From NCBI RefSeq assembly GCF_000204055.1, contig NW_006768766.1:2470524-2534523 (forward strand): DNA of 64,000 nt, read 5' to 3'. The notes under the pieces are model-generated. The model ran no database searches and had not been told where the DNA came from. It saw only the letters and a program-made list of their open reading frames with translations. Below are positions 5,388 through 63,700 of this stretch, one piece after another. The DNA comes from Melampsora larici-populina 98AG31. Taxonomy: Eukaryota; Basidiomycota; Pucciniomycetes; Pucciniales; Melampsoraceae. The translations under genes and the position numbers were made by a program. The first letter of the stretch is position 1, and every line of letters begins with the position of its first letter.

Positions 5388-5549
5388 CGGTCTGTTTAAA
5401 CTACCACTCTGATAAGCACAAACTCAAACAAGAACTTTGATGTAAAACAACTCTGACCTGTTTAAACTACCGCTCTGATAAGCACAAACTCGAACAAGAA
5501 CTTTGATGTAAAACAGCTCTGACCTATTATAAGGTACAGAAAGGATAAT
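5388..5549. repeat. Host repeat split by the MULE: two 68-bp tandem units plus the left target flank
   Basis: A unit beginning ctgtttaaactac and ending ctctgacct is present twice in tandem at about 5390-5457 and 5458-5526, followed by attataaggtacagaaaggataat. The same repeat resumes across the Mutator-like element at 12168. It recurs in a longer version at about 12280-12436 and 12650-12722. It is an older repeat of unknown class, possibly an LTR remnant. Confidence 0.65.
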
Positions 5550-6143
5550 GGACGCCACTATTTGGCGACTGGATGAGTTTTACCCGAAGCCCGGTTTTCC
5601 TGGTACTTTACCCGCGTTGATTCTGGCAACCCGGACACGCTCCTGCCAAATTTCGCCGCAGCCGCAGCAATTCCTCAAACTAGGGCTGTCCATCACAGGC
5701 AAGCGGGCTTCTTCCTAACCGGGCTACCCTCTACCCATGTCATCCTCACGCTATCCAAACCAGGCTCTTGAATTCTGGACTGCCAAACCGGGCTATCCAC
5801 ATCTCTCTTCCTCACCACTTCCGCATTGGTTCATTTGTACCTCTCCTGTAACCAACTGTTGATTGATTTGAGCGACCTCCTTCATCAAGCTACCTCTCAG
5901 AGGTGACCATCCAATATGTATTGGCCAAACACGGTCGTGGCGTCCAACATGGTAAGTCTAAGTCTATAGTTCCCTCCCTCTCCCTCTCAAGTATCTTGCG
6001 CTGGCTGACTGACTCCTCCTTCCTCCTAGGCAATTCTGTGCAGAAACACCGTCTTCTTTGTTCACCTCAACACCAGACGTCGCACCGTCCTGGTCTTGGT
6101 CCACGCTACCGATTCCTACATCCTGATAACACCCCCTCTCGAG

Positions 6144-8781
6144 ATGTCTCTCAATCACCCTATCCCAACGGCATTGAAGTCTCAAGATTCTCGAGATAGT
6201 TCGTCGGCACCTTTGAACCACTCTCACCCACCAAATTCATATCCCTATATGTATCATACCGCCAATAACTATTGGCCACCTTTTCCATATCATGGAAACA
6301 CATCACAACCGTTTCCTCCCTTTCCGAACACAAACCACCCAAATCAAGGGCATTTCCCCCAATATATGTATCCGACTTCTTATCAGCCCAGTTTTCCGCC
6401 CGGTTTTCCGCCGTACCCACCGTACGGATATCCAGCGCCTCATGGTTACCATATGTCACCGGCTATCCCTTCTGACCCCGATGGAAGTCACCCATCTCAA
6501 CCACAAGCTACTCAAGCACCAGCACCCATTTTGTCTCACATGTCACCAACTATTGGTACTGACCCTTCCCAAGAACGACTATCACCAACTATTTTCAATG
6601 TAACCATCGATAAAAGTCAACTCACTCAAACCACCAGCCTGTCACTTTCCTCCCCGAAAGCACCTGCACAGTCTGAAGCTGAACTTAAGCAAGATGCAGC
6701 ACTTCCTTCTGAAAATGACAACTACGGAACAGACAATGAGATCTTTGATGATCTTCAAGCTGAGCGTGATAGCAATTGGCCTGATATCGGTCCGTTTGAT
6801 TTCTCTCTTCCCATGTCACTTTCATTTCTCAGATCTGACATTCTTTTTCTTTTTCCCTTATCCAGGTATTCAACCAGTGCGACTCATGAAACCGCCAGTT
6901 TTTGGAAAACAATTTGTGGCAATGGCGAGCGGAGTTATGTACTTGAATGCTGTTGCTCAACATCAAGGATACGGACTCAGTATTAAAAGTCATAAGACCA
7001 AACATCATCAAAAGGTTCGAATCTATTTCAGGTGCTCTTTGGGGCGCCCAGTAAACTCTGTAGCCACGGTTCGAGCAAGCTCCACAAAAATGAACAACTG
7101 TGAAGTTGAGGTTCCATTGAATTGTCACTTACGTAAGGATTGATGGTTTGTTCAGCGGGATCCAAAGACACCTGCAAAACATGTTCACAACCACCCTCTG
7201 TTTTTTGAACAACCAAACAATCTATCCAAAAACTGTCGATTCACCCAGGAAACCTTAGATCAGATGGACTTACTGGCATCAGCTGGATGCCGCGCGAGCC
7301 AGATACGTCAACTCTTGCATTTCGAACCCGGATCTGAACCGCTTGTCAGAGACATCTGCAATGCTCTGTGTCGTCAAAGAGACGTTTGGCTAGCTGGACG
7401 CACCCCAATACAAGGTTTATTCGTCTTGATCATGGAAAGTCGATGGGCCTTTCGGACGACTACAGCCAGTGACGGAACTTTGCAATCACTCTTCATCGCC
7501 AGCCCTCAAGGCATCGACTTAGCTTGTCGGTTTCCCACCGTCATAGGTTTGGACTGCACCTATAAAACCAACAGATTCAATCTACCGTTGCTTCACATCG
7601 TAGGGACAACAAACACTCACAAAACTTTCACGGTGGCCCTGTGCTTCATGCACAGCAAGGTCGAAGAACGATACGTTTGGGCTATGGAGCAATCAAAGTC
7701 TGTGGTGTTCAACGGCGACTCTGAAGACCACTCATACCCGCTTCCTCAAACGTTTTGTACGGATGCTGAGCCAGCATTGTTCAATGCAATCGGTAAAGTG
7801 TTTCCTAGCGCAACACACATTTTGTGTATATGGCATATCAATCATAATATTGCCAAGAATTGCAAGAAGAAGATGAACAAGACCGAATGGGAAGAATTCA
7901 TGCAGAGTTGGAATCTATTTTTGCAAATCACAAATAATCAAGCATACGATGAACATCTTGAGACTGTCAAGAAACTCGCTCGACGACATCATATTTTGGA
8001 GTATCTGGAAAAGACGTGGCTCTATCGAAGCGAAAAGTTTGTCGCTCTTTTCACGTCGCAAACACCACATTTCGGCAACTCGTCAACTTCCCGAATCGAA
8101 GGTGGCCACCATCAACTCAAGAACTTTTTAGACGGCAGCAATAATGATTTCATAACATGTTTCAAGGACTTCAAGCATGCGGGAGACTCTCAGTATCAGG
8201 CAATCGCTACTTTGACCGGAGTAGAAAGTCAAAAAATACTTAACGGGCTACCGACATGCTTTCAAGAACTGATTGGTGTAATATCACATTTTGCCCTGAA
8301 AAAGATGAAGGCTCAGTACAAACTTATTCCGGAATCAATCAACAGGGAGTGTACCAAATCTTTTTGTGGCGCTTGGGGACTACCATGTTCCCATGAGCTC
8401 GCGCGTGCTCTAGTACAATCTGACTACATTTCACCTCAGCTTGTTCACCAACAATGGAATCTCACTCTGGTCGCGCCCCCAGCCACTCACGACAATCTCA
8501 AGAAGGCAGTGAAGTTAAAGGTCAAACGCCTATTTGAACTTGATGAACACTCACTGCGAAAAGTTTACAAAGACCTCGCTAAGATAGAAACCGGCCGGTA
8601 CTCCCTAGTTCCAATTAAAAATGCTAAGGTCAAGATTCAAAACCGTGGCAGACCTCGTGCCAATCAAAACAAACACCCTGGAATGTCACAAGAAGAGAAA
8701 GGTAAAGGACGTTGGAAAAGGGACATGGAGGTAGAGGACACCGAAGAAGCTCTAAGAGATGCTAAAAAAAAGGGTGGCTAA
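6144..8781 (+). pseudogene. MULE transposase part of the transposase-Rtc4-OTU gene, one nonsense codon and one frameshift
   Basis: Exon 1 is 6144-6789 (Pro/Tyr-rich, low complexity), joined by a 76-bp intron to an exon starting at 6866. Near 7000-7200 a C...C...HxH pattern fits the FAR1/WRKY-GCM1 type DNA-binding fold of MULE transposases. An in-frame TGA at 7141-7143 interrupts it. The catalytic core follows: first Asp in VIGLDCTYKT (about 7552), second Asp in FCTDAEPAL (about 7762) followed by CxxH, and Glu in SRIEGGHHQLK (about 8098). A SWIM-like GLPCSH lies near 8380 and an AT-hook-like RGRPR near 8645. The frame then breaks at a run of eight A residues (8764-8771). Losing one A continues it into a zinc knuckle, so 8779-8781 is probably not the original stop. 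The damage suggests this copy cannot make full transposase, although the DDE core is unbroken. Confidence 0.85.
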
Positions 8782-11748
8782 TCCTCGGTGTAGCCATTGT
8801 GCTCAGCCGGGCCACCGAATCACCACTTGCCCGGTGCTTCACACTGACCCAGCGGAATATGAACGCGATTTGACGCCGTAAGAGGAAGCCGCCAGAGTTA
8901 ACTTCACGCTTACTGATTCCCAAAATTCGGTGGCTCCTTCTTCATCCAAGGCGACACAACCTGTTTCACAAGCAACTCTTAAATCATCTCAACCGCTGAA
9001 ATCATCAATAAAGCGCCTTTACAAATGCAGCATTTGTAAAGAGGAGAATCATCGTGCCAATCATTGCCCACATCGAACTAAGGACAGTGGCAAAGTCGAT
9101 CTTCCAGCACCTCAACAAGTCGATGTGCTAACAGTCTCAGCTACAGCTCAAGATCTCAAGCAACCAGCAACACCAAGCGCTGACTTGGCAAACCCTGGGG
9201 CAGCATTGGACACCAGTCCCAAACCGCTCTGGTCGGATACAGAAGATGACAACTTGTGTCCCTTCTGTGAAGATCCCCTCCCATCCCACCCTTCGGCGAA
9301 ACTCCAGAGTCAGAAAGCCGCGCTTCTGTCTTTGCCTAATGCATCCTCCCTTTCGGTGAGTAGGCCACGTTACACTACACAAAATGTCATCTTTACCGGG
9401 CGGTAAAGAAAACTACTGACATAGAAAAATGCTGAGGCAACAGGAAGAGAGCTAAAAATCTGAAAAAATATGCACCTTGTTCCTAGATGTTGGGGCATCA
9501 TGATGAGATTTTTTTTGTATTTTACACACACATATTGGTTAATGTACCAACAATAAAGGCTGAAAATCATTGACAAACCACCTGTAACAATACCTGAAAT
9601 TTGGCCCATGATTTTGAAGACATGATTTTGAAATCTTCAAACATCAATAACTTTTGCAGTTCTGAAATGAATCACTTGATTTTGAATTCATCAAAAAGGT
9701 GAGTCTTTCCTCTACATTTATCATTCAGACATCACATCTGTAGCCGGTCTGCAAAAGATTCTACGGAGATATTTATTCAGAAGTGTTTGAACATATGTAG
9801 AGCATTTACATGACTAGAAAACACCTTACTACCTTTATGAAGTGTAAAGGAGAATGGTTCAGCTTTTGAATGATCCAAAAATCAAGTTATCTGTAGCAGA
9901 ATTGCAAAAGTTATTCAAGTTTTTAGACCACAAAATATTGTCTTCATGATTTGGACCCAAATTTCAGGTATTGTTACAGGTGGGTTGTTGACAATTTTCA
10001 GCCTTTATTGTTAGTACATTAACCAATATATGTGTGTAAAATACAAAAAAATCTCATCATGACGCCCCAACATCTAGGAACAAGGTGCATATTTTTTCAG
10101 ATTTTTAGCTCTCTTCCTGTTGCCTCAGCATTTTTATATGTCAGTAGTTTTCTTTACCGCCCGGTAAAGATGACATTTCGTGTAGTGTTACTCACCCTTA
10201 CTCTACCAATTTTTTTGCTGAATGAGGTTGTCTTTGATGGTCATTCGAAATGGTTGAACATCACTAGTTCCCACAAACCGCCCAGTTTTGCACTCTTCAT
10301 CGGGCTGAACGGGATGTGATCCTGTTTGGAAAACGTGAGGGTTGGCCGACAGCCATCAACTTTTGTGGTTTGCCCCGGTGAGCATCTCATTGATTTTGGA
10401 CTTTTGCTTTTGGTACTTACAAACGTGACATTCACCGTGTCCGGGTAGTGTTTGCTCGTCAACGAGCGCGCACGACTTCCCTTTCTGCCTCAAAGGGAGT
10501 TGGTGTGCGCTCGTCGACTAGCAAAGCCTACACAGACACGGTGATTCAAAAAGGCGCATCGAAAAGCAAGCGAGTCATCTTTTCAAGATTATTCAGCGTC
10601 AAATACCGTCTTTTTACCTGGATGCTGCCCAGCATAAGTGGAAGACGCAGGGAAGGTACATGTTCAGTATGTCTGGCAAATTCGATGGCTTTGAGGTTGA
10701 GCAACCCGGGTAGTGAGTATGTGAATTGTTTTGTGAAGATAGGATGTCACACTGACAAACTATTGATTTCCTTTCCAGTTTTGGCCAACTTGGGTATGAG
10801 GTTATGGTCAACGAATTGACCAGAGCTTTCTTGTCCGATTCTTCCAATACTAAATTGGAGGCAAGCAACACATCCCCATTTCCCGCCGAATACTTCCTGC
10901 GTCGCGTTTTGCTTCCGGAGCTGGCCATTTTAATCATTGCCAAAGACCTGGGCATCCCGCCCAATGACCCCAAAGTTAGGAAGACACTCAAATCCAGTCG
11001 GGAATTTGGTACTGCACTGTTCAACAATGAAGATGGAACTTTTGACCCACTCTCATTCTCATCAAGTGGTGAGGGGGGTGGTGTTGCAAGTAGTCCGATA
11101 GACCAAGCAATTTTGGATCAACTTCCAAGTACAATCATTCAACATACATCTTCCATGTTCAATCCCCCGGCTTTGGGAAACTGTGGATACCATGCTATAG
11201 CTGCGTCGATTGGAATGTATTCGGATGCTTCTTATTTGGATGTTAGGAGCAAATTATTAGCTGAAATCACGACCCACGTTGAAGATCATGAACGGTTAAT
11301 ATGTGCTCCTCCCACCCGGACTTCCATGAAGACACGGAGTATTCAATGGTTTGGCGCCAAGGTAGTACAGGATTTGATCTTCCGACTGGATTACATGGAA
11401 GTTGAATGTGCGGAGGAATACTGGCTGCGTATGCCTTATATGGGGTATGTGATTGCTAGTGCTTACAATTGGCCAACCGTCCTTTTGGAGCCGCGCCCAT
11501 CATATTGCCAAATGTTCTTCCCTTATTGCACTACCCCCAGTGATGAAAAAATTCAAGATCAAGAACCAATTGTAATTGCTTATGTGAACAAGAATCATTT
11601 TGTGAGTTTGGGATTGAAGGATCCTCGGTCTATGCCCTTTCCAGCCGTGTTTGGATACGGCCGTAACACAGCAATGCTGGAGAGTACCCACATACCTGCG
11701 TGGGTCAAAAGGTATCAAAAACAATTAGATATGTGGAGCCGCTTGTGA
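8782..11748 (+). CDS. Downstream part of the same MULE gene: zinc knuckles, Rtc4-like domain, OTU cysteine protease
   Basis: The frame reached by removing one A at 8764-8771 gives a zinc knuckle PRCSHCAQPGHRITTC (from about 8786), a TAA at 8879-8881, and a second knuckle YKCSICKEENHRANHC near 9020. Next comes CPFCEDPLP near 9250, then exons 10268-10377 (CTLHRAERD, GWPTAINF), 10554-10709 and 10779-11748. The order CPFC, HRAE, GWP..I.F, FDGFEVEQPG, GQLGYEVM, FLRRVLLPE fits the Rtc4-like domain of fungi. The last exon carries an OTU fold: catalytic Cys in LGNCGYHAIA (about 11181) and His in NKNHFVSL (about 11596). All splice phases agree. No in-frame ATG lies between the TAA and 9355, which argues that this is not a separate gene but the end of the transposase protein. 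Known OTU proteins cleave ubiquitin-like chains; activity here is inferred. Confidence 0.78.
9373..10187. mobile_element. CACTA-like non-autonomous foldback element in an intron of the MULE gene
   Basis: The ends read CACTACACAAAATGTCATC (left) and its inverted counterpart CACTACACGAAATGTCATC (right), flanked by TTA on both sides (9370-9372 and 10188-10190). CACTA ends with a 3-bp duplication are the signature of the CMC/EnSpm superfamily. The inverted repeat extends about 250 bp into each side, leaving about 300 bp of middle with no coding capacity. A small palindrome CTTTACCG/CGGTAAAG lies 20 bp inside each end. It lies within the intron 9356-10267, so the host frame is preserved. Confidence 0.87.
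10433..10543. mobile_element. 111-bp foldback element with CACCGTGTC ends
   Basis: The whole segment is an imperfect palindrome: CACCGTGTC at the left and GACACGGTG at the right, about 45 bp per arm, around an inner CCCTTT...AAAGGG hairpin. ATT flanks it on both sides (10430-10432 and 10544-10546), a 3-bp duplication. Without it the intron 10378-10553 keeps a good acceptor (AAAAAG at 10553). The CACCG terminus resembles the CACTA-type element at 34630-36010, though the rest differs. Confidence 0.75.
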
Positions 11749-12176
11749 TCCTCTTATTATTTGGCTCATGTCTAGCTCTCTTGCTCTTTGTGTGTTCTCT
11801 GCTGTGACTGTGACTTTCTCTATCTTTCACTCATTATATTCTCTTTCTCTCTCACTCGTTTGTTTTGTGTGCTCTCACTATGTAGTCTATTTACTTGATT
11901 GAATTGAAGTGCAAGTGCACGTTTTGTCAAAGTGACAAGGAGTGAGTGAGTGACAAGAGTTGTGAAGTGTCACAGATTGTCAAAAAGTCACGAAGCGTCA
12001 AGAATTCAATAGTTTTCCTTTGAAGATAAGTATAAGTAGTGGAGAGTAGAGCCGGGCGCTGAAAAACCGGGCGCTGTAGGTCAAGTTACACAAAAGGGTG
12101 GTGAAAATCAAATTACCTGATTTCCGGGCGTCGGGTTGAAAAAACCGGTCGCCAAATAGTGGCGTCCAAGGATAAT

Positions 12177-12722
12177 ATGTTGATTAGTTAATATGTTATC
12201 TAGATTTGATAACAGATCTCTGGTGATCTACAAAGAGAACAAAAGTTTCTCTTCCCAAAGATATTTATTATATTCACCTGTTTAAACTACTGCTCTGATA
12301 AGCACAAACTCAAACAAGAACTTTGATGTAAAACAACTCTGACCTAAAACAAACAACTCTATCAGAAGCTATTATGAAAGAAGTGAAAAGAATAGAAAAC
12401 ATTTAATACCTATTATAAGGTACAGAAAGGATAATAGGGGGTTTCAAGTCAGAAATTTTTTGTGAACTTTTCAAAAACGGACAAGTTTTTTAAATTTTAC
12501 AGTGGGTTTTTTTTCTGCAAATATACGGTCAACACCATTTGGGACACCTAAAAAGGTGTCCCAATTTTTTTAAATTTACGGTATATTTTGCAACATCGGA
12601 CAACTTGTTGGACTGTAAAATACCGTAAATTTATTGACTTGAAACCCCCTAATATGTTGATTAGTTAATATGTTATCTAGATTTGATAACAGATCTCTGG
12701 TGGTCTACAAAGAGAACAAAAG
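12177..12722. repeat. Right part of the MULE-split repeat followed by a second, longer copy
   Basis: ATGTTGATTAGTTAATATG starts at about 12176 and again at 12654, each followed by the same block to aacaaaag. Between them the unit seen at 5390 recurs at about 12280-12345, then a stretch absent from the first copy, then attataaggtacagaaaggata. The first copy lacks internal blocks bounded by short identities (acct and ttct), as expected of deletions between microhomologies. This is an old repeat of unknown class. Confidence 0.6.
12437..12649. mobile_element. 213-bp MITE with TAATA target duplication
   Basis: Ends are GGGGGTTTCAAGTC and its exact inverse. TAATA precedes it (12432-12436) and follows it (12650-12654). 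The empty site is visible at the first copy of the host repeat, which reads straight through GGATAATATGTTG across the MULE target. An inner hairpin GGGACACCTAAAAAGGTGTC lies near 12540-12562. Superfamily is not certain. Confidence 0.85.
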
Positions 12723-16918: not shown

Positions 16919-18046
16919 TTACTTTTGGGTGCTATCCCCCGCGCCATACGTTCCTTCCAATCCGCCGTGATACAGCTTCAGCTTTGACATGTGAAATACC
17001 GGATACGAGAGGTCGTTTGCTCCTAGGCGTAGTCAAAAGTCTCGTCCTGAATTTAAAACTTCCACTACTTCATAAGGGCCATCGTACCTCGCTCGTAACT
17101 TGCTGACTTTCTTATGTCTTCCGCCAACTACCTGCTGCCTGTCACTGCTGTCTACCATGACAAGATCCCCGACTTGAAAGCTTGTTCCTTCTTGCCTACG
17201 TTGGTTGTACTGAAATGCTTGACCAACCCGGCTACGCCACAAGGAGTCTCGCCATGTTGCCCATTCGCTTTGTTGACGTTCAATCCAATGTTTGACATCC
17301 TCGGCCTCCTCCTCTAAGGGGTGCTGTATTGGGAAGAGCCTTGGGATTTGTCCGTACACGAATTGAAAGGGAGAGACACCAGTCGCGCGGTTGACGGCTG
17401 AGTTGATAGCAAACTCAGCGGAAGGAAGACTTTGAAACCATTTACCATGTTTGTTGCCAACTTGATGACGGAGGATTTGTCCGATCGTCTTATTTGATCT
17501 TTCACTCCTGCCGTCCGCTTGAGGGTGGTATGCCGTAGATAAGTTGATACGCACTCCCAGCAACTCATGTAACCGTTGCCAAAACCTTGATGTCCAAGCT
17601 TTATCCCGATCGCCTATGATTGATTGTGGTAATCCAAAGATTGAGGACCATGCTTGAAAAAGTCGGCTGGCTGATTTTTCGGCCGTATCACGTTGACACG
17701 CTGGAATCAATCTGACAAAACCCGTAAGACGACAAGTACAAGAGAGAATCATATCATATCCTGATACTTTTGGAAATGGTCCTATGAAGTCTATGCCAAT
17801 TGACTCCATCGGCTCGTAGGGTATTGGTGTGCTTTGTAGTCTTCCTGCTACAGGTGATGTCCTGGCTTTGTTACGCTGGCATGAATCACAAGTCTTCAAC
17901 TGATTTTCAACATCCTTGCTCATACTCGGCCAAAAAAACGTACTCCTGAGATGAGATAGTGTCTTAAAAGGTCCTAGGTGGCCTAGTGCCTCATGAGCCT
18001 GTGCGATGAAGTCGTGGCGTAAGTTGCTGTGACGTGGTATCACCAA
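16919..18046 (-). pseudogene. Gypsy integrase, continuous with the upstream Pol frame apart from nonsense codons
   Basis: It is in frame with the upstream polyprotein; the TGA at 18047-18045 separates them (LMYLDG, stop, LVIPRHSN). Integrase has the zinc-binding H..H..C..C region (HEALGHLGPF to CDSCQRNK, about 17870-18015). The catalytic residues are Asp in IGIDFIGPF, Asp in IIGDRDKAWTSRFW and Glu in ADGRSERSNKT. A second TGA near 17033 (GRDF, stop, LRLGANDLSYP) precedes the C-terminal MSKLKLYHGG block, which runs to a TAA at 16919-16921. Both stops can be explained by C to T at a CpG in a CGA Arg codon. No chromodomain is evident. Confidence 0.88.
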
Positions 18047-21000
18047 TCAACCGTCCAGATACATAAGATTATCTTGCATGATACAGTCATCTCGTAATGG
18101 AAGCACCTTGCAAAGTTTTACACAGAATGGATCGTGATCGTATCCCAGTTGAATGGAGTCAAGTTTGTCGCTGCCTAATTTGGCTTTCACCTCGCAGACC
18201 GCTACGTCGTCTCGTCTCAAAAGGGCGTCAGCGACAGAGTTATCTTGGCCTTTCAAGTATCGGAAGTCAAGATCAAACTGGGAGAGCGTTTCTAACCATC
18301 TTGCTTGTCTACGGCTCAGGTTTCGTTGTGTGAGGAGGGTGGTCAGCGAATGATGGTCCGACATCACATTGACCCGCATACCTAGAAGTAATAATTGCCA
18401 TTTATTGAGGGCGTTGATTACCGCAAGCAGCTCCTGTTCGTGAACCGGGTAATTCTTTTCCGCTGGGGTCATCGTACGGCTTTTGTAAGCAATAGGAGAC
18501 GCGGTGTCCCATTCCGCACCTTGGAAGAGTGCCGCTCCTAGGCCATTACCACTTGCATCACTAAATAACCAGATTGGCTCTTGTGATTCATAATCCAAAT
18601 TGCGAAGCACCGGAAGCGTTGTGATAAGTCTTTTGATGTTATTAAAAGCACTCTCTTCTGCTTTGCCCCACCGGAAGGGCTTTCCTTTCAATGTCGTGCT
18701 AGTCAGGGGTGTCAGCGTACCAACGTAGTGAGAAAGCCCGTCGATGAACTTCTTCATCCACTGCACGGTGCCCAAGAACTTCAGTAATTGCTTTGAATTA
18801 GATGGGGAAGCCCATTTCGAGATTTTCTCAACTTTTTCTCCATCGTGGCAAACTCCCAGTTCGCTGATTTCATGACCAAGGAATTGAATTTGGCGTCGAA
18901 AAAATTTACTCTTCTTGCTGGAGCAATATAGCTTAGCTGCTCTTAACCTTTCCAAAACCATCTTAACATGGAGCTCGTGCTCTTCCACGGTCTGCGAGAA
19001 AATCACTATATCATCAATATAGACAACACAGATTTTTCCTACCAGGTCTCCCAGCACCTCCTCATTACGAGCTTGATGTGTGGCTGGTCCGTTCGTCAGT
19101 CCCATAGGCATGCCGGTCCACTCGTAAAGGCCCCACGGTGTCTTCACTGCTGTGAGGGGAATATCCTCCTCGCGCATCCGGTCTTGAAAAAAGGAGTTTG
19201 TTTGATCTACTACAGACCAAATCTTTCCGGTTGCAACAAGGCGGACTGCCTCATCCACGTTAGGCAAGGGTGCACGGTCTTTGACGGTAAATTTGTTAAG
19301 GGTTCGGTAATCACAAACCCAACGCGGCAACTCAGCAGGGTCTTTCTTCGGTATAATCATTGAGGCCGACCCATACTGGCTTTGCGAGCGTCGAAGACGA
19401 CCGGCTGCGACATGTTGATCAAGTAACTTCCGCCAAGACGCTAGATGTCTATGCGGGTACGCAAACTGTTTTTCATTGATAACAGCATTAGGGTCGGTAA
19501 GAATGATCTTATGTCGAACCTGACGCGATGGGTCTGGCATCCCTTCAGGAAAAGACTCAGGTATTGATTCGTCGCCTTCCTCTACCGGTGGTAACTCTGC
19601 AGGAAACAAATCTTCAAACTTTCTGAACACACTCTCTTCTTTCTCTCTCAACACTTCAACTTCATCTATCAACTTCAAATTTTCCAAAGCACATAACAAA
19701 TTTTCCATTTCAGTCTGAATCTTCTTTTCATATAAAATCTTTTGACTTGGAACATGTATCACACAACGCCGATGCATAGAAACGTCTAATTTAAATTTCG
19801 ATAGAAAAGGGGAACCGAGTATCATGTCGTACTTCGAACCTAACGGAGCCAGCTTAAAAAAAACCGCCCCAAACCGGATATTAGGCTGTTCACACTTAAG
19901 ATTGGCAAATGCAAAATCTTTCAGTATCACCGGGGCACCTTCAGTTGATATGGCCAGGCGTACCTCAACCGGAGATACAAGCGGTCGGCGAGGTATTTTC
20001 AGGTTAGACGCCATCCGATCCGAGAGAAGATTGGTCCCTGCTCCCGAGTCAATCAAGGCGCGAACCGGTTGTCCATTACACATCAGTTCCAAGATGATTG
20101 GAGAAACTGGTGTGGGATTCACGCACCTAGTTTCCTGATGCTCAGCTTTCTCAACCAACTCCTCTCGCTGCCGATCAGCTTCTTCATAAGCAGCGATATC
20201 CTCTGCTAGCAAGTCTGGAAATGCGTCGACTGCGGCGATTCGAGTTGCAGGCATGACAGGAGCTGGTCGTCCGGCAGGTCGTTGCGTAGGCGCTCCAGGG
20301 ATACCTCGTGGTTGAGGTGTTGGAGTTGATCGTACAGGGCGAGGGCCGGCATCAAAGCTTGAGGGTACCGAGAGGAATCGATTGGTCCTCTTGGTACAGT
20401 TTGCATCATTGCACTTTTCTTTACATACTCCACAGATTCCCATTCGTCGTAAGTACTCGTGATATCTCCACCCACTCTCTGCTCGTTCCTCCTCCGAACG
20501 CTGTCTTGGGATTGGTCTCGACGCGTTGCCACTAGCCACCTGATTTGCATTGACAGTCACCGTTGATCTCGTCTTGAGTGCTGGATCCGCAATCAATTTG
20601 CTGTGAATAAGGAATCTCCAGATCCCGTCGGCTGCTTGTTTGAAAGCTGGGAATGAGAACGGTTCCTTCTTCAGGTGAGCCTCGCGATCGATCATGTCTC
20701 TGAAGAGGATCGGTGCGCCCCAAGTGATGTATTGGGCTAAATGTTGGTCGTTGACTTGACCGAAACGTTTAACGAGGCGATGGAGAGTTTGAGCTCGGAT
20801 TACGTAGGCGTCAAAAGATTCGGATGGCTTCATCTCAAGTTGGCGAAGAGCGTCCTCGGTATCAGTTAACCAGGCATGTGGTAAGGTGCCCATTGCCATC
20901 ATGTTCATCGCTCCATCCCATGACTGTTGCCGCATTTCCTCTTTGTTCGATTGGTACCACGCAGACATTTCTTCAGTGTTTAATAATGAACCGAGTAATT

Positions 21001-22174
21001 TAAGTTTCTCTCGATCGTCCGTCACATTTTTGATTTCAAAAGTCTCTTCAATTAAACTCCGCCAGTGAAACAAGTCTGCTGGGCGTCCAAATTTTCCGCT
21101 AAATTTGGGAAGGTCACTGAGTTTGATACGATCAGCGGTCATTGAGGTGTGTCCCTGTTCCGTGTACAGAACTTGTCGTCCTTGAGACGCCGGATCGAAG
21201 CGATGTTCTTCATGAGTAGGAGACGGAAAGTAAGGTCTTTGGGGCGTTGGATCCTGTACCTGATGGGTTGGAAGATGCGGATGCGGTGGAGCCTGCTGAG
21301 CTGGAGTAATGATCAGACTGGGCGGGACAGCTTGTGGTCGTGGTGATTGTACACGGCGTTCGTTCTCCTCGGCATAACCCGTAGCACGGTTGTTGTCCGG
21401 TGGGAAATTGGGAGTGAATCCGGTCGTCGTCGCTTCCGCACCAACCTGTTGGCCAGCCTCCCTTCGTCCGGCAGGAGTTGGCGAGACAGGTGTCCTGTTC
21501 ATGTAGTGAGCAAAACTCCCACCTACATTCCCTGATGGTGGCTGGTTGCTGCCTGCCACACTCGCACTGCCTACATCTACACCCTGTGATTGCTGGCCTC
21601 GCTCTGAAAGTAGTTCGCGTACCAGCTTCTGCAAGGAGAGGGTCTCCCTTCTTGATTGCTCCAGTTCCTCGGATTGGCGTTGATAACCTTGGACCTGGGC
21701 TCTGAGCGACTCAATCGTCTCTTCAGGGTTCGACATCGTATTTGTCGGATCACAGGTGAGTGTCAAGTTGTTTGACCTAGCCGATTGTTTCGATATAGGT
21801 GTTATGTCGACGAGATAGCCCGGTGGGTGTGGGGTTGACTCCGGATAGCTAATCCTCGCTTGTCCGAGTAGCTTTTGGAAATGTAAGTCGACTATTTGAT
21901 GATCAGCAACCGATGGCGACACGGTAGGCGGGGAGTATTTGACTGTTGAGGCTTCGGAATCCTCGGATCCTTGAACTACCGACGATGCGTATAAGTATCG
22001 GTTCGTTTCGGTAGCTTGGCTCTCCGGTTTCCAGAAAAATTTGCTCAACGACGGTGCTGGTGGTGTTTCTCGATCCTCCGGCACTGATCGTTCTTTGCCT
22101 TTAGCTGCTTTACGTAGAAGTGAGTCCGGGTCGTCGAGGTAATTGTCTGGTTTCCAAGAGGAAGGACCTGACAT
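18047..22174 (-). CDS. Gypsy Gag-protease-reverse transcriptase-RNase H polyprotein
   Basis: This 1,375-codon frame starts at the ATG at 22174 (MSGPSSWKPDN), about 210 bp from the 5' LTR. The N-terminal third is Gag, with a retrotransposon-gag block near 20700-21100 and a Cys cluster CGVCKEKCNDANC (about 20410-20440) that is not a standard CCHC knuckle. Protease follows with the active site LIDSGAGTNLLS (about 20040). Reverse transcriptase has the catalytic VYIDDIVIF (about 19010), and RNase H has FSDASGNGLGAALF (about 18555) and MSDHHSLTTLL (about 18350). The fused Gag-Pol in one frame is common in fungal gypsy elements. No break is present within it. Confidence 0.93.
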   Translation of the reverse strand: MSGPSSWKPDNYLDDPDSLLRKAAKGKERSVPEDRETPPAPSLSKFFWKPESQATETNRYLYASSVVQGSEDSEASTVKYSPPTVSPSVADHQIVDLHFQKLLGQARISYPESTPHPPGYLVDITPISKQSARSNNLTLTCDPTNTMSNPEETIESLRAQVQGYQRQSEELEQSRRETLSLQKLVRELLSERGQQSQGVDVGSASVAGSNQPPSGNVGGSFAHYMNRTPVSPTPAGRREAGQQVGAEATTTGFTPNFPPDNNRATGYAEENERRVQSPRPQAVPPSLIITPAQQAPPHPHLPTHQVQDPTPQRPYFPSPTHEEHRFDPASQGRQVLYTEQGHTSMTADRIKLSDLPKFSGKFGRPADLFHWRSLIEETFEIKNVTDDREKLKLLGSLLNTEEMSAWYQSNKEEMRQQSWDGAMNMMAMGTLPHAWLTDTEDALRQLEMKPSESFDAYVIRAQTLHRLVKRFGQVNDQHLAQYITWGAPILFRDMIDREAHLKKEPFSFPAFKQAADGIWRFLIHSKLIADPALKTRSTVTVNANQVASGNASRPIPRQRSEEERAESGWRYHEYLRRMGICGVCKEKCNDANCTKRTNRFLSVPSSFDAGPRPVRSTPTPQPRGIPGAPTQRPAGRPAPVMPATRIAAVDAFPDLLAEDIAAYEEADRQREELVEKAEHQETRCVNPTPVSPIILELMCNGQPVRALIDSGAGTNLLSDRMASNLKIPRRPLVSPVEVRLAISTEGAPVILKDFAFANLKCEQPNIRFGAVFFKLAPLGSKYDMILGSPFLSKFKLDVSMHRRCVIHVPSQKILYEKKIQTEMENLLCALENLKLIDEVEVLREKEESVFRKFEDLFPAELPPVEEGDESIPESFPEGMPDPSRQVRHKIILTDPNAVINEKQFAYPHRHLASWRKLLDQHVAAGRLRRSQSQYGSASMIIPKKDPAELPRWVCDYRTLNKFTVKDRAPLPNVDEAVRLVATGKIWSVVDQTNSFFQDRMREEDIPLTAVKTPWGLYEWTGMPMGLTNGPATHQARNEEVLGDLVGKICVVYIDDIVIFSQTVEEHELHVKMVLERLRAAKLYCSSKKSKFFRRQIQFLGHEISELGVCHDGEKVEKISKWASPSNSKQLLKFLGTVQWMKKFIDGLSHYVGTLTPLTSTTLKGKPFRWGKAEESAFNNIKRLITTLPVLRNLDYESQEPIWLFSDASGNGLGAALFQGAEWDTASPIAYKSRTMTPAEKNYPVHEQELLAVINALNKWQLLLLGMRVNVMSDHHSLTTLLTQRNLSRRQARWLETLSQFDLDFRYLKGQDNSVADALLRRDDVAVCEVKAKLGSDKLDSIQLGYDHDPFCVKLCKVLPLRDDCIMQDNLMYLDG

Positions 22175-22655
22175 CCGATGGCTTTCGATAAGGTTTAGGT
22201 TTGATCGGGGACGATTAAGGTTGGGAAGTCGGAGATCCCAAAGACAGAATGCGGAGTTGACAGGTTAACTTTATATCGTTGATCGATATAAAGACAGATT
22301 CTTTTTGCAGAACAGAAAACAGATTTGACAGAAGGATGAAAAAATTCTTTTTAAAACTTTCGAAGTGATAAGTTAAAAAAAGTGTAAGGTCTCTCAAGAC
22401 CTTCACTAGATGTCTGGATTCTTTCTCAACGGACTCCTCGGAGAGCGCTAACTTAGAACTTCGGTGTGAATTACACTACGGTCCAAACCCAAAGAGTGGC
22501 TCTCGAAGAGTCAGCACCCAATCTAAGAGAATAGAAACTAAACAAAAGAGAAAACAATCAAATAAGGAATAAATCTCACCTAGCTCCAGATAGTCCCAAA
22601 GAGTGGCTCTCGAAGAGTGAAGACTATCCGAAGCCAGGCTGAGGAGAGAACAATA

Positions 22656-52474: not shown

Positions 52475-54290
52475 CCGGGGATTTTTAGCATTGAAAGCCA
52501 TCTCTCAAATGACTTTGAGGAGTGAAAGCAGTTCATCTTCTTTACAACTTTATGCATTTGTTTTATTTCTATTTCACAAACAAGAGTCTCAACATGTATA
52601 TACAATCAGAATCAGATAATGTCAATTCACAAAAGAAAACTCTTAATCATTCCCACCACTTGAATCATCCCCATCACTTTGATTATTCCAACTGCTTATG
52701 ATTTCTTCATTGTCTCACAGCTTTATTAGGATCAGTAGGAGGAGTACAAAACAGAATTCCCTGACCAGCTTTGTCGTTACAGGGATTTTTGGAATTGCTA
52801 CCTACAAAAGTCATTGTTTCTTTCTTGTTGCATTGGATTGTGCCAGTAAACTTGCCAGTCGGATCTTCCTTTGATGGTACACATTGAGCTTTTGATGAAG
52901 TTGGTTTTGTACCCTTCGTAACACATAAGACCGAAGGTGGGTTAACAACAGGAGTTGCTGCAGCACCTTTTTTGCAAGAGATCGGAATTGCAGACAATTC
53001 ACAAAAGAGCTTGGTTGGTTTCTTTCCACTTTTATCACAATCTTTGAATTTGATTTCAAGTTTCGCTTTGTCACTACATCCAAGTTCACCTCTGGCTGTT
53101 GCGCCTGCTGGGGCTGTTGTTGACTTTGAGTCCACTTTAGTGCATATAAGTTGCGGCTCCTTTGAACTAGTGCCCGTTTTCTTGCAAGTGGGCTTTTGTT
53201 TCAAAGGGTCTCCACCAGTCGCCGCACAGAATACGTCGAGATTACTTTGATCGTTGTTTGCTCGTTTGACGAACAATTGCGAACCTTCCACTTTAGGCGC
53301 ATGAATGTACACCGCTACAAGAAAAACCAAAGTAACAATGCCACAAGATTTCATTTTTGAGAAGCTGGATTGAGGGTGAATTGGAAAGATGATCTAAGAA
53401 GCTAAGTTCGGATATATGAAGAAGGGAGACTTCAAGTTTCAAACTCGAGGTGTCCAGGGGTAAGTGGAGAGTAACAAGGTGTCAAAGAGTTCGTCAAGAA
53501 AGCTCTTCGTCTACTTTGGAAATCAACGAGTCAACTAGAAATATATTGAATGTGATATAAGGACAAGGTCTAATTTTTGCTTTGTGCGAATGTAGGTAGG
53601 TGCAGAATGAAATGTTGAGATGCAATAAGATACACTTTGTGAGGTATGGCTGAGGAAGTGAGGAATGGGTAATTGGGGGTGAATGTGTGCTGCTTTTATA
53701 GTCCACCGGTCTCAGGAAGGACGGCGAACATGCAGCTATCAAGGTTTTGCTCATGCACAGCAGTGCTCATGTGTGATCGTTAACAATGAGCGAGTGGCTC
53801 TTAGTCTTACGTCACTTCCAACAGGCAAAATCCAAATTAGGTTTTGAGTTTGAGCTCAAGAGATCACATTCTTGGTGAGGCATTCTCGGAAGTGATAGGG
53901 AAGCCAGCCAAAGAACATTTCACCGAGACCGAATCACGATCTTTCAAAGACGTGGTCTCGGACTTTAAGGCGATCGACAAGGATCGACATATGACTACGA
54001 AAGAAATTCCAAAATTTCAGTCTGATTCCTTCATTTAACGATGTCACTACGATGTCAGTCGATAGCAATCCTTAGCAATCCCGTCTCATCCGGACGGACT
54101 TGTCCACATTGGACGCCAGCATCAGAGCTAAACCTAGCCGAACATCGTATCTTCGGGGAAACGGCACGCGAGGGAGGCGTCCGAGGTGGTTGTCGACCCT
54201 TGTCGATGCATGACATCAGCTCCTGGGTTGCTCCATTCCTTGATGCTAATATTCGAATGATCATTGGGTCTAGCGTCCGAGCCAAAGTTT
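52475..54290 (-). repeat. Segmental duplication, copy A, containing the secreted protein gene
   Basis: This block is similar to 62085-63700 over the whole gene, about 130 bp downstream of it and several hundred bp upstream (shared cttcaagtttcaaactcgag, gatataaggacaaggtctaa, tcgatgccaat-type blocks). Copies differ by many substitutions and some deletions, so the event is not recent. Confidence 0.85.
52707..53354 (-). CDS. Small cysteine-rich secreted protein, candidate effector
   Basis: The protein has 215 residues and starts at MKSCGIVTLVFLVAVYIHA, a typical signal peptide, with likely cleavage near VEG|SQL. The mature part is Lys/Thr/Ser-rich and contains 12 Cys, an even number that suits disulfide bonding outside the cell. 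The module GELGC..C..TKLFC in the first half is echoed by GTIQC..C..ILFC in the second, pointing to an internal duplication. No enzyme motif is visible. It has no intron and lies next to repeats, with a diverged paralog at 62292. In rusts such proteins are treated as candidate effectors or apoplastic proteins; the role is inferred. The stop is at 52707-52709. Confidence 0.85.
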   Translation of the reverse strand: MKSCGIVTLVFLVAVYIHAPKVEGSQLFVKRANNDQSNLDVFCAATGGDPLKQKPTCKKTGTSSKEPQLICTKVDSKSTTAPAGATARGELGCSDKAKLEIKFKDCDKSGKKPTKLFCELSAIPISCKKGAAATPVVNPPSVLCVTKGTKPTSSKAQCVPSKEDPTGKFTGTIQCNKKETMTFVGSNSKNPCNDKAGQGILFCTPPTDPNKAVRQ

Positions 54291-62084: not shown

Positions 62085-63700
62085 TTTTTAGCATTCAAAG
62101 CCATTTCTCAAATGATTTTGGGGACTAGAATCATTTTATCTTCTTCACAACTTTATTCATTTGATTTGTTACATACATATAAGGCTGTTTCAGGAACAAG
62201 GGTCTCCTTCAAACCTTAATACATGCATTCAGAAAATGTAAAATCACAAAGTGTTTCTAGCTCTCCAACTTTCCCACCACTTATGCCCCTTTCAATTCTT
62301 TACAGGTTTGCTAGGAGGAGTACAAAACAGCTTTCCATTACCAACTGGGGCATTGCAGGGGTTTTTGACACTGGTACCAACAAAAGTCATTGTTTCTCCC
62401 TTCTTGCATTGAAGTGCCCCAGTAAACTTTCCAGTTGGACCTGACTTTGATGGTATACATTGAGGTTCAGTAACAGTCGGCTTTACACCAATGGTGATGC
62501 AGGAGATCAAAGGTGGGTTGACAAGAGGAGTTGCTGAAGGACCTGTTTTACAGGAGATTGGAATTGAAGGCAATTCACAAAAGATCTTTGTTGGTTTCTT
62601 TCCATTTTTATCACAATCTTTGAATTCGATTTCAAGTTTTGCTTTTTCACTACACTGAAGTTCACCTCTGGTTGTTGCGTTTGTTGGGGTTTTTGACTTT
62701 GGAATTGCTGGCTTGTCACACAACAGTCGAGGTTCTTTTGAAGAAGCGTCTTTTTTCTTGCAAGTGGGCTTCTGTTTCAAAGGTTTTCCACCAGTCGCCG
62801 CACAGAATACGTCGAAATTACTTTGATCTTTTTTTGCCCGTTTGACAAACAATTGCGAACCTTTCACTTCAGGCGCATGAATGTACACCACTACCAAAAA
62901 AACCAACGTAACGACGCCAAAAGATTTCGTTTTTAGGAAGCTTGCTTGAGTGTGAATTGGAGAGATGGGCTAAGAAGCTAGGTTCGAATATATCAAGAAA
63001 GGAGACTTCAAGTTTCAAACTCGAGGTGTCCAGGGAGAAGTGGAGAGTAACAGAGTGTCAAAGAGTTCGTCAAGAAGGCTCTTTGTCTACTTTGCAAATC
63101 AAAGAGTCAACTATAAATATATTGAATGTGATATAAGGACAAGGTCTAATTTTTGCTTTGTGCAAATGTAGATAGAATGTTGAAATCCAGTACAGTACAC
63201 TTTATGAGGGATGGCTGAGGAGGTGAGGAATAGTCAAATGGGAGTATATGCGTACTGCTTTTATATTCCACCGATCTCAGGCAGGACACTGATGATTGAG
63301 CCATCACTGTTTTGCTGATGTAAAATCGGATTTGCTAACACCCAAATGCGCGCCTGGCTCTTGCACCACGTCCGACAAGACAATCCTAAATTTGCTTTGA
63401 AGTTCGAGCCTCAGAGCTCACATTGACGGGAAGGCGTTCTCGGAATTGCCATTTAAAATAATATTTCACCGAGACCGAATCAAGATGTATCACAGACGCG
63501 GTGTTTGCCCTTGAGTCGACGGAGGATATGACTCCCCAAGAAATCCCAAATTTCAGTCTGGTGATGTCATCCTATGATGTCAGTCAATAGCAATCCGTAT
63601 CAATCCCCTCTCGTTCGGACTGACCCTCCCGGTTGCCCCGTTCCTCGATGCCAATATCCGAATGATGTCATAGCCTCCGAGACAAAGGTCTGGGCACATA
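62085..63700 (-). repeat. Segmental duplication, copy B
   Basis: This is the counterpart of 52475-54290, in the same orientation, with deletions in the upstream part after about 63600. The last 300 bases of the window (63700-64000) hold no recognised gene. Confidence 0.85.
62292..62930 (-). pseudogene. Paralog of the cysteine-rich secreted protein, start codon lost
   Basis: The frame is open and alignable along its length with the product of 52707-53354. It shares SQLFVKRA, VFCAATGG.PLKQKPTCKK, FKDCDK.GKKPTK.FCEL and the closing LFCTPP, with the same Cys spacing except that the stretch after LLCDKP is shortened. At the position of the ATG the codon is ACG (62930-62928), and no other in-frame ATG exists until near the C-terminus. 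The secretion signal is otherwise kept (LVVVYIHAPEV). Either it is a very recent pseudogene, or it uses a non-ATG start, or the base is an error. Confidence 0.7.

What the first reader, a model, noticed from the sequence alone, without database searches (positions are those of the whole stretch)
6144..11748. Mutator-like transposase apparently fused to Rtc4-like and OTU protease domains in one protein
After removing introns and one extra A in an A8 run, a single frame of about 1,456 residues covers FAR1-type zinc region, MULE DDE core, SWIM, two zinc knuckles, an Rtc4-like domain and an OTU domain with Cys (GNCGYHA) and His (NKNHF). The downstream part has no ATG of its own, which supports fusion rather than two genes. 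MULEs with ULP1-type proteases are known (Kaonashi elements); a MULE carrying a deubiquitinase-type OTU plus the telomere-linked Rtc4 domain is, to my knowledge, not well described. Such a protease could remove ubiquitin or SUMO marks from the transposase or from host silencing proteins.
Basis: partly seen in the sequence, partly recalled or inferred. Interest (0 to 1): 0.87.

Follow-up and report, generated by a model that had tools for sequence, protein, structure and literature searches.

The report
Jumping gene carrying a ubiquitin-type protease
A family of fungal DNA transposons encodes one long protein that joins the cut-and-paste enzyme to a piece of a fungal protein called Rtc4 and to a protease of the kind that removes ubiquitin, which suggests that these elements bring their own tool to edit the cell's ubiquitin marks when they jump.

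Summary
The fusion is real, but the window copy is broken. Positions 5550-12167 are a 6.6-kb Mutator-like element with 24-nt inverted repeats and a 9-bp target duplication. Relatives carry the argument. In the same 98-Mb genome 72 of 80 transposase loci have the Rtc4-OTU exon within 3 kb downstream on the same strand; chance gives 0.14. In 26 of 30 loci a phase-0 intron of 55-96 nt joins the knuckle exon to the Rtc4 exon. 16 of 21 elements have inverted repeats and exact 8-10-bp duplications. The OTU part folds like A20/VCPIP1 deubiquitinases, keeps Cys and His in 21 of 21 copies and is under purifying selection. A sister family, two loci read, has MULE and OTU in one uninterrupted ORF without Rtc4. 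Transposons with ubiquitin- or SUMO-type proteases are known (Ginger1, Helentrons, Kaonashi MULEs); my nine paper searches found no MULE transposase fused to OTU or Rtc4. Activity and role are inferred.

The parts
5541..5549 (.). target-site duplication, left (9 bp)
   Evidence: exact match to 12168-12176
5549..5572 (+). left terminal inverted repeat; the element proper starts at 5550
   Evidence: 24 nt, 96% complementary to 12145-12168
6144..6789 (+). exon 1: low-complexity N-terminal part, ATG at 6144
   Evidence: ORF; donor by inspection; no Pfam family
6866..9355 (+). exon 2: FAR1-like part, MULE transposase (core ORF 7144-8778), SWIM, zinc knuckles and the CPFC start of the Rtc4 module; broken by in-frame stops at 7141-7143 and 8879-8881 and a frame break near 8780
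   Evidence: Pfam MULE 2e-23; ORFs; stops and D/D/E
9356..10267 (+). intron between knuckle exon and Rtc4 exon, enlarged by a nested foldback element (arms 9369-9515 and 10045-10191)
   Evidence: GTGAGT donor and AG acceptor at the places conserved in relatives; inverted repeat
10268..10377 (+). exon 3: Rtc4 module, C..H zinc pair
   Evidence: matches in 20 of 20 fetched pair loci; splice sites by inspection
10554..10712 (+). exon 4: Rtc4 module up to QPG
   Evidence: matches in 16 of 20 fetched pair loci; intron after it in 24 of 30 loci
10779..11748 (+). exon 5: end of the RTC4 domain and the OTU protease; Cys codon 11182-11184, His codon 11596-11598; stop 11746-11748
   Evidence: PF14474 7.1e-9; OTU fold; residues
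12145..12168 (-). right terminal inverted repeat; the element proper ends at 12167
12168..12176 (.). target-site duplication, right (9 bp)

Best explanation
The window holds a decayed copy of a Mutator-like DNA transposon family whose one spliced gene encodes one protein: FAR1-like zinc region, MULE DDE transposase, SWIM, zinc knuckles, an Rtc4 module like that of transposase-free fungal Rtc4 proteins, and a C-terminal OTU cysteine protease. Shown by sequence: one unit between inverted repeats, conserved order, conserved in-frame splice junctions, conserved catalytic residues, purifying selection on the OTU. Inferred: the OTU is an active deubiquitinase, and the fusion keeps it on the transposase-DNA complex, where it most likely strips ubiquitin in cis from the transposase and from chromatin or repair proteins at excision and insertion sites, so that the complex is not degraded or blocked. 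Rtc4 would act as a docking part to nuclear or DNA-end proteins. My odds: fusion about 0.95, active protease about 0.8, the cis role about 0.45.
For: 72 of 80 transposase loci have the OTU exon within 3 kb downstream, same strand, chance 0.14, none in opposite orientation within 10 kb. MULE, knuckle, Rtc4 (first piece) and OTU matches in this order in 20 of 20 pair loci read; FAR-like piece in 19, second Rtc4 piece in 16. Phase-0 intron of 55-96 nt in 26 of 30 loci; GTRAGT donor with in-phase acceptor in 20 of these 26 against 0.03 expected in shuffled introns. Phase-2 intron inside QPG-Y-[YF]G in 24 of 30. Inverted repeats with exact duplications in 16 of 21. Core and OTU distances correlate, r 0.84, 0 of 9,999 permutations. 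OTU fold, Cys and His in 21 of 21, median pN/pS 0.316/0.776 against 0.279/0.818 in the transposase and 0.459/0.779 in the linker. Sister family with MULE and OTU both above Pfam cut-offs in one uninterrupted ORF.
Against: No transcript or protein evidence. The window copy is broken. 8 of 80 transposase loci lack an OTU locus within 3 kb and 39 of 115 OTU loci lack a listed transposase, though the lists are capped. The database held few joined gene models: P0005 (lacks the SWIM-knuckle stretch) and P0010 (lacks the MULE core and the OTU). Silent sites are near saturation, so selection is a bound; the one close pair, L020-L038, gives 1.29 for the transposase on very few changes. In four of 21 elements no inverted repeats were found. 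The role of Rtc4 is a guess.
Confidence: 0.75

Rival explanations
1. Two adjacent genes in one element: a transposase gene and a separate Rtc4-OTU gene, as KIU-type plant MULEs carry a Ulp1 gene beside other genes.
For: The reading frames differ between the blocks, and the OTU exon is always a separate ORF in the Rtc4-type elements.
Against: Only 55-96 nt separate the blocks in 26 of 30 loci, with donor and acceptor in phase; the second junction restores QPGYYG only after splicing; the Rtc4 zinc site is split over exons 2 and 3; the sister family is one ORF.
Confidence: 0.04
2. The Rtc4-OTU part is a host gene fragment picked up by chance, without a role for the element.
For: MULEs are known to take up host fragments (PMC6431247, passages); the Rtc4 part resembles transposase-free Rtc4 proteins.
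Against: Kept in copies only 35-62% alike over the OTU exon, with invariant Cys and His and fewer amino-acid-changing than silent differences, and travelling with the core.
Confidence: 0.03
3. Same fused protein, other role: the OTU acts in trans against host silencing, for example on histone or heterochromatin ubiquitin, rather than protecting the transposition complex.
For: KIU elements carry the Ulp1 domain in a VANC-type anti-silencing gene (PMC13317346, passages).
Against: Here the protease is joined to the transposase, not to an anti-silencing factor.
Confidence: 0.2
4. Same fused protein, other role: the OTU is a maturation protease that cuts the fusion into transposase and Rtc4-OTU parts, as tymovirus OTU enzymes cut their polyprotein (recalled).
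For: The linker between transposase and Rtc4 is long and poorly conserved (pN/pS 0.459/0.779).
Against: I saw no conserved cleavage-like motif between the blocks in the printed exon ends; this was by eye only.
Confidence: 0.08

Closest known systems
Ginger1 DNA transposons (PMC2836005, passages)
   Same: DDE-type transposase with a C-terminal OTU or Ulp1 protease domain in one protein; TIR element
   Different: Core is a Gypsy-integrase-like enzyme, not MULE; no Rtc4 mentioned in the passages; animals
Kaonashi (KIU) / Ulp1-carrying plant MULEs (PMC13317346, passages)
   Same: Mutator-like elements that carry a protease of the ubiquitin-like-modifier kind
   Different: Ulp1, not OTU; in a VANC-type gene separate from the transposase; non-TIR elements; plants
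Helentrons with OTU and VTD deubiquitinase domains (PMC9741609 and PMC6431247, passages)
   Same: Transposon protein with OTU domain; proposed to prevent degradation of proteins needed for transposition; transposon OTU activity untested there
   Different: Rolling-circle RepHel protein, not a DDE transposase
Fungal and Puccinia MULEs of the broad MULE survey (PMC6446971, passages)
   Same: Basidiomycete MULEs with SWIM, CCHC, and FAR1 in half the members
   Different: The text has no occurrence of OTU, ULP or peptidase
MULE-OTU proteins without Rtc4: L045, L046 (same genome) and P0006 (Puccinia striiformis)
   Same: MULE core and C-terminal OTU in one protein; OTU homologous to the window's (hhalign E 2.9e-22 and 2.1e-12)
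   Different: No RTC4 hit at E<=1 (L045, L046) or E<=0.5 (P0006); no Pfam OTU hit in P0006
Transposase-free Rtc4 protein P0017 (Tephrocybe rancida)
   Same: Whole Rtc4 module, 30% identity over 244 columns to P0010
   Different: No transposase or OTU hit at E<=0.5

Membership tests
Mutator-like elements (MULE) | MULE transposase domain with D/D/E | tested here: met
   PF10551 2e-23; D, D, E at 7552, 7762, 8098, kept in 20, 20 and 21 of 21 loci
Mutator-like elements (MULE) | terminal inverted repeats and 8-11-bp target duplication (size recalled) | tested here: met
   24-nt repeats, 9-bp duplication; 16 of 21 loci with 8-10 bp
Mutator-like elements (MULE) | SWIM zinc finger | tested here: met
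   C, C, H present by position; no separate Pfam SWIM hit was listed; ZSWIM1-3 RNaseH-like domain hit 3.3e-7
Mutator-like elements (MULE) | FAR1 DNA-binding domain (in part of the superfamily) | tested here: inconclusive
   no Pfam FAR1 hit at E<=1 in the window pieces; weak 0.048 in P0006
OTU cysteine proteases | OTU fold | tested here: met
OTU cysteine proteases | catalytic Cys and His | tested here: met
   21 of 21 loci, window included; geometry in the model not measured
OTU cysteine proteases | Pfam OTU model PF02338 | tested here: inconclusive
   not hit at E<=1 by the window exon; 26.2 and 23.8 bits, cut-off 23.3, in the homologous sister family
OTU cysteine proteases | deubiquitinase activity | not testable with these tools
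   needs an enzyme assay
Rtc4 proteins | RTC4 domain PF14474 | tested here: met
   36.3 bits, cut-off 23.7
Rtc4 proteins | role at telomeres or in the DNA-damage response | not testable with these tools
   recalled; mentioned in PMC9370660 (passages)
Ginger1 | Gypsy-integrase-like core | tested here: not met
   core is MULE; no integrase family among hits at E<=1
Kaonashi (KIU) MULEs | Ulp1 domain in a VANC-type gene separate from the transposase | tested here: not met
   no Ulp1 family at E<=1; protease joined to the transposase

The most novel reading that the evidence does not exclude
Transposases of this MULE lineage are DNA-tethered deubiquitinases. An older MULE-OTU fusion, still seen without Rtc4 in this genome and in Puccinia striiformis, later took a whole host-type Rtc4 module with its zinc site between the knuckles and the OTU. 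If so, reported expansions of RTC4 and OTU families in rust genomes are in good part transposon genes rather than DNA-damage or effector genes, and Rtc4 itself can be studied as a partner of ubiquitin editing at DNA ends.
Probability: 0.4. Interest if true: 0.78.

Novelty: new variant of a known kind. Interest (0 to 1): 0.64.

Why it matters
Proteases for ubiquitin-like modifiers sit in Ginger1, Helentron and plant MULE elements (passages), which points to a shared need in transposition that is not explained. Here the protease is part of a MULE transposase in a large and diverse family, so the need can be tested on one protein. It also warns annotators: 45 RTC4 proteins of Puccinia novopanici were read as help against DNA damage (PMC9370660, passages), and OTU-like proteases are listed as enriched in a comparison of wheat rusts (PMC5295586, passages). 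I did not test whether those proteins come from this kind of element; they should be checked for a linked transposase.

Tried and rejected
Rejected: two separate genes (26 of 30 loci with a short in-frame intron; 20 of 26 with GTRAGT in phase against 0.03 in shuffled introns; itself the script prefers GTRAGT and YAG, and its choice needs an open exon, so its donor counts lean upwards). Chance neighbourhood. Passenger fragment. Ginger1 or KIU membership.

Led nowhere: a profile search of PDB sequences gave 3 hits at E 0.53-0.69; two of them align at the Cys loop (7jms is a Hazara virus OTU by its title, that Lpg2248 is an OTU enzyme is recalled). The third protein search found no complete joined gene model beyond P0005 and P0010. 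Nine paper searches listed no paper whose listing or passages describe a MULE transposase joined to OTU or Rtc4; the library is open-access only, and I opened 10 papers as passages or abstract, none in full. The species could not be named; a rust is inferred from P0006, P0010 and the genome size. The size of the sister family was not obtained: 7 weak OTU matches (26-27% identity), 2 of 7 read. A Foldseek table was not obtained; the VIA list covers only chains that Foldseek ranked.

Counts and rows dropped: one search reported 152 matches, 150 were listed and merged to 115 loci; one search listed 91, merged to 80; both lists are capped. Of 72 pair loci I fetched 20 by place (the first of four lists in contig order, not chosen by quality). 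The 30 loci are the window, nine partial loci from searches and the 20; L001 and L009 (the window) and L005, L007, L010, L011, L012, L014, L016 (loci already counted) were left out. The codon survey uses the window and L019-L038. In one search, 15 OTU exons without stops or long gaps were aligned with the window and five database proteins; 10 of the 25 candidate loci were left out for stops or short matches. Of 8 transposase loci without an OTU locus within 3 kb: L013 does carry Rtc4 and the start of exon 5; L039 and L040 have Rtc4 but no OTU match beyond it; L041 has no match to any piece in 3.5 kb; four have an OTU locus 5-12 kb away and were not read further. Of 39 OTU loci without a listed transposase, 7 are the weak sister-type hits; of the rest three were read (L042-L044): all three have Rtc4 upstream, two also the knuckle part, none a transposase match in about 3.6 kb.

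Full report
What is in the window. Positions 5550-12167 form one DNA transposon of 6,618 bp. Its ends are inverted repeats of 24 nt, 96% complementary, flanked by the exact 9-bp duplication AAGGATAAT. The end pattern, with one mismatch allowed, occurs nowhere else in the window. Inside, on the + strand, lie a low-complexity N-terminal exon, a MULE transposase (PF10551, E 2e-23), zinc knuckles below the Pfam cut-off, and an exon with an RTC4 domain (PF14474, E 7.1e-9) followed by an OTU-like stretch. D, D and E of the transposase, the SWIM cysteines and histidine, and the OTU cysteine and histidine are present.

It does not exist in this copy. Between the FAR1-like part and the transposase core there is an in-frame TGA (7141-7143); the frame changes after the ORF that ends at 8781; an in-frame TAA follows the first knuckle (8879-8881). 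The intron after the knuckle exon is 912 nt long because a foldback element with 147-nt arms sits in it. So the copy is very probably dead. The exon with the OTU is uninterrupted.

Relatives in the same genome. The OTU exon gave 152 matches, 150 listed, forming 115 loci; the transposase core gave 91 matches forming 80 loci. In 72 of the 80 an OTU locus follows within 3 kb on the same strand, at 816-1,978 bp; none lies in opposite orientation within 10 kb; chance would give about 0.14. The lists are lower bounds. I read 20 of the 72 pairs. Matches to MULE, knuckle part, first Rtc4 piece and OTU come in this order in 20 of 20; the FAR-like piece matched in 19 and the second Rtc4 piece in 16. Identities to the window are 46-72% in the core and 33-52% over the OTU exon, so this is an old, diverse family.

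One gene or two. In 26 of 30 distinct loci a phase-0 intron of 55-96 nt joins the knuckle exon (mostly ending SLP) to the Rtc4 exon (mostly beginning FPQT or FTQT). The other four are the window itself (same donor and acceptor, nested element between), L013, and L027 and L030, whose Rtc4 motif my pattern did not recognise. As a control, a GTRAGT donor with in-phase acceptor is present in 20 of the 26 and in 0.03 expected with shuffled introns; intron lengths fall evenly on all three remainders of three. A second intron, phase 2, 54-96 nt, lies inside the Rtc4 motif QPGYYG (QPGYFG in the window, HPGYYG in L032), which is formed only when it is removed, in 24 of 30 loci. Such gaps leave hardly any space for a second promoter. 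P0010, an annotated protein of Melampsora americana, and P0005, a 968-aa protein from an unnamed assembly, both read QPGYYG and run from transposase parts into Rtc4; P0005 goes on into the OTU. P0010 lacks the MULE core and the OTU, and P0005 lacks the SWIM-knuckle stretch, so they support the reading without proving it.

The unit moves as one. In 16 of 21 loci the coding unit lies between inverted repeats that resemble GGATCCCACTATTTNNCGCCC and has exact duplications of 8-10 bp; L034 has repeats without a duplication; in L022, L028, L033 and L036 I found none. Protein distances between copies in the core and in the OTU correlate (r 0.84, 0 of 9,999 permutations, 21 loci), as expected if the parts have travelled together.

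A sister family supports the fusion of MULE and OTU directly. Seven weak OTU matches have only 26-27% identity. I read two: each is one uninterrupted ORF, 1,035 and 1,042 aa, with MULE (78.3 and 79.1 bits, cut-off 27.6) and OTU (26.2 and 23.8 bits, cut-off 23.3) and no RTC4 hit at E<=1. Their OTU is homologous to the window's (hhalign E 2.9e-22, L046). L046 has imperfect 112-nt inverted repeats and an 8-bp duplication; for L045 the ends were not resolved. A Puccinia striiformis protein, P0006, has the same layout, with an OTU that Pfam does not report but hhalign does (E 2.1e-12). I infer an older MULE-OTU fusion into which an Rtc4 module was later inserted; I built no tree to test this.

The Rtc4 module. 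P0017, a 1,040-aa protein of Tephrocybe rancida without a transposase hit, shares the whole module with P0010: the CPFC pair, the C..H pair, the GW motif, QPGYYG and the LVPE stretch, 30% identity over 244 columns. So the element carries more than the Pfam domain: it carries the conserved body of an Rtc4 protein, with a likely zinc site split over exons 2 and 3. The name comes from a yeast telomere-capping screen (mentioned in PMC9370660, passages).

How it likely works. The transposase binds the element's ends through its zinc parts (from family knowledge). The joined OTU would act where DNA is cut and repaired. Ubiquitin on the transposase can lead to its loss, and ubiquitin on histones and repair factors organises the response to breaks; removing it locally would favour completion of transposition. 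Authors of the Ginger1 and VTD papers propose such roles for other elements (passages). That the protease counters silencing instead has a parallel in plant KIU MULEs (passages). None of this is tested here.

Novelty. Transposons with ubiquitin- or SUMO-type proteases are a known kind: MULEs with Ulp1, Ginger1 and Helentron proteins with OTU. Nine paper searches showed no MULE transposase joined to OTU or to Rtc4; the text of the broad MULE survey has no occurrence of OTU, ULP or peptidase. The library holds open-access papers only, and repeat databases were not searched. I call it a new variant of a known kind.

Noticed in passing
9369-10191: Nested foldback element (147-nt outer arms, 97%, further inner arms) inside an intron of the transposon; its own target duplication was not resolved.
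   Followed up: partly
10432-10544: Short palindromic stretch (53-nt arms, 81%, 7 nt apart) inside the next intron of the same gene, possibly a second small insertion.
   Followed up: no
5390-5549 and 12276-12435: The element sits in a repeat: a 66-bp unit twice on its left and once on its right, and the sequence of the left junction flank recurs downstream at 12396-12435.
   Followed up: no
17036-22264 (-): Two long ORFs (337 and 1,405 aa) that look like a Gypsy-type retrotransposon by eye.
   Followed up: no
52710-53393 (-) and 62295-62969 (-): Two similar ORFs of about 225 aa whose N-termini look like signal peptides; possibly a tandem family of secreted proteins.
   Followed up: no
L039, L040, L041: Elements of this family cut off in or before the OTU; L040 runs into an ORF that looks like a Tc1-type transposase by eye.
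   Followed up: partly
PMC13208475 (abstract and passages): A 330-aa OTU protein of Melampsora larici-populina was reported to reduce global ubiquitination and discussed as a virulence factor; whether it stems from a transposon of this kind was not checked.
   Followed up: no
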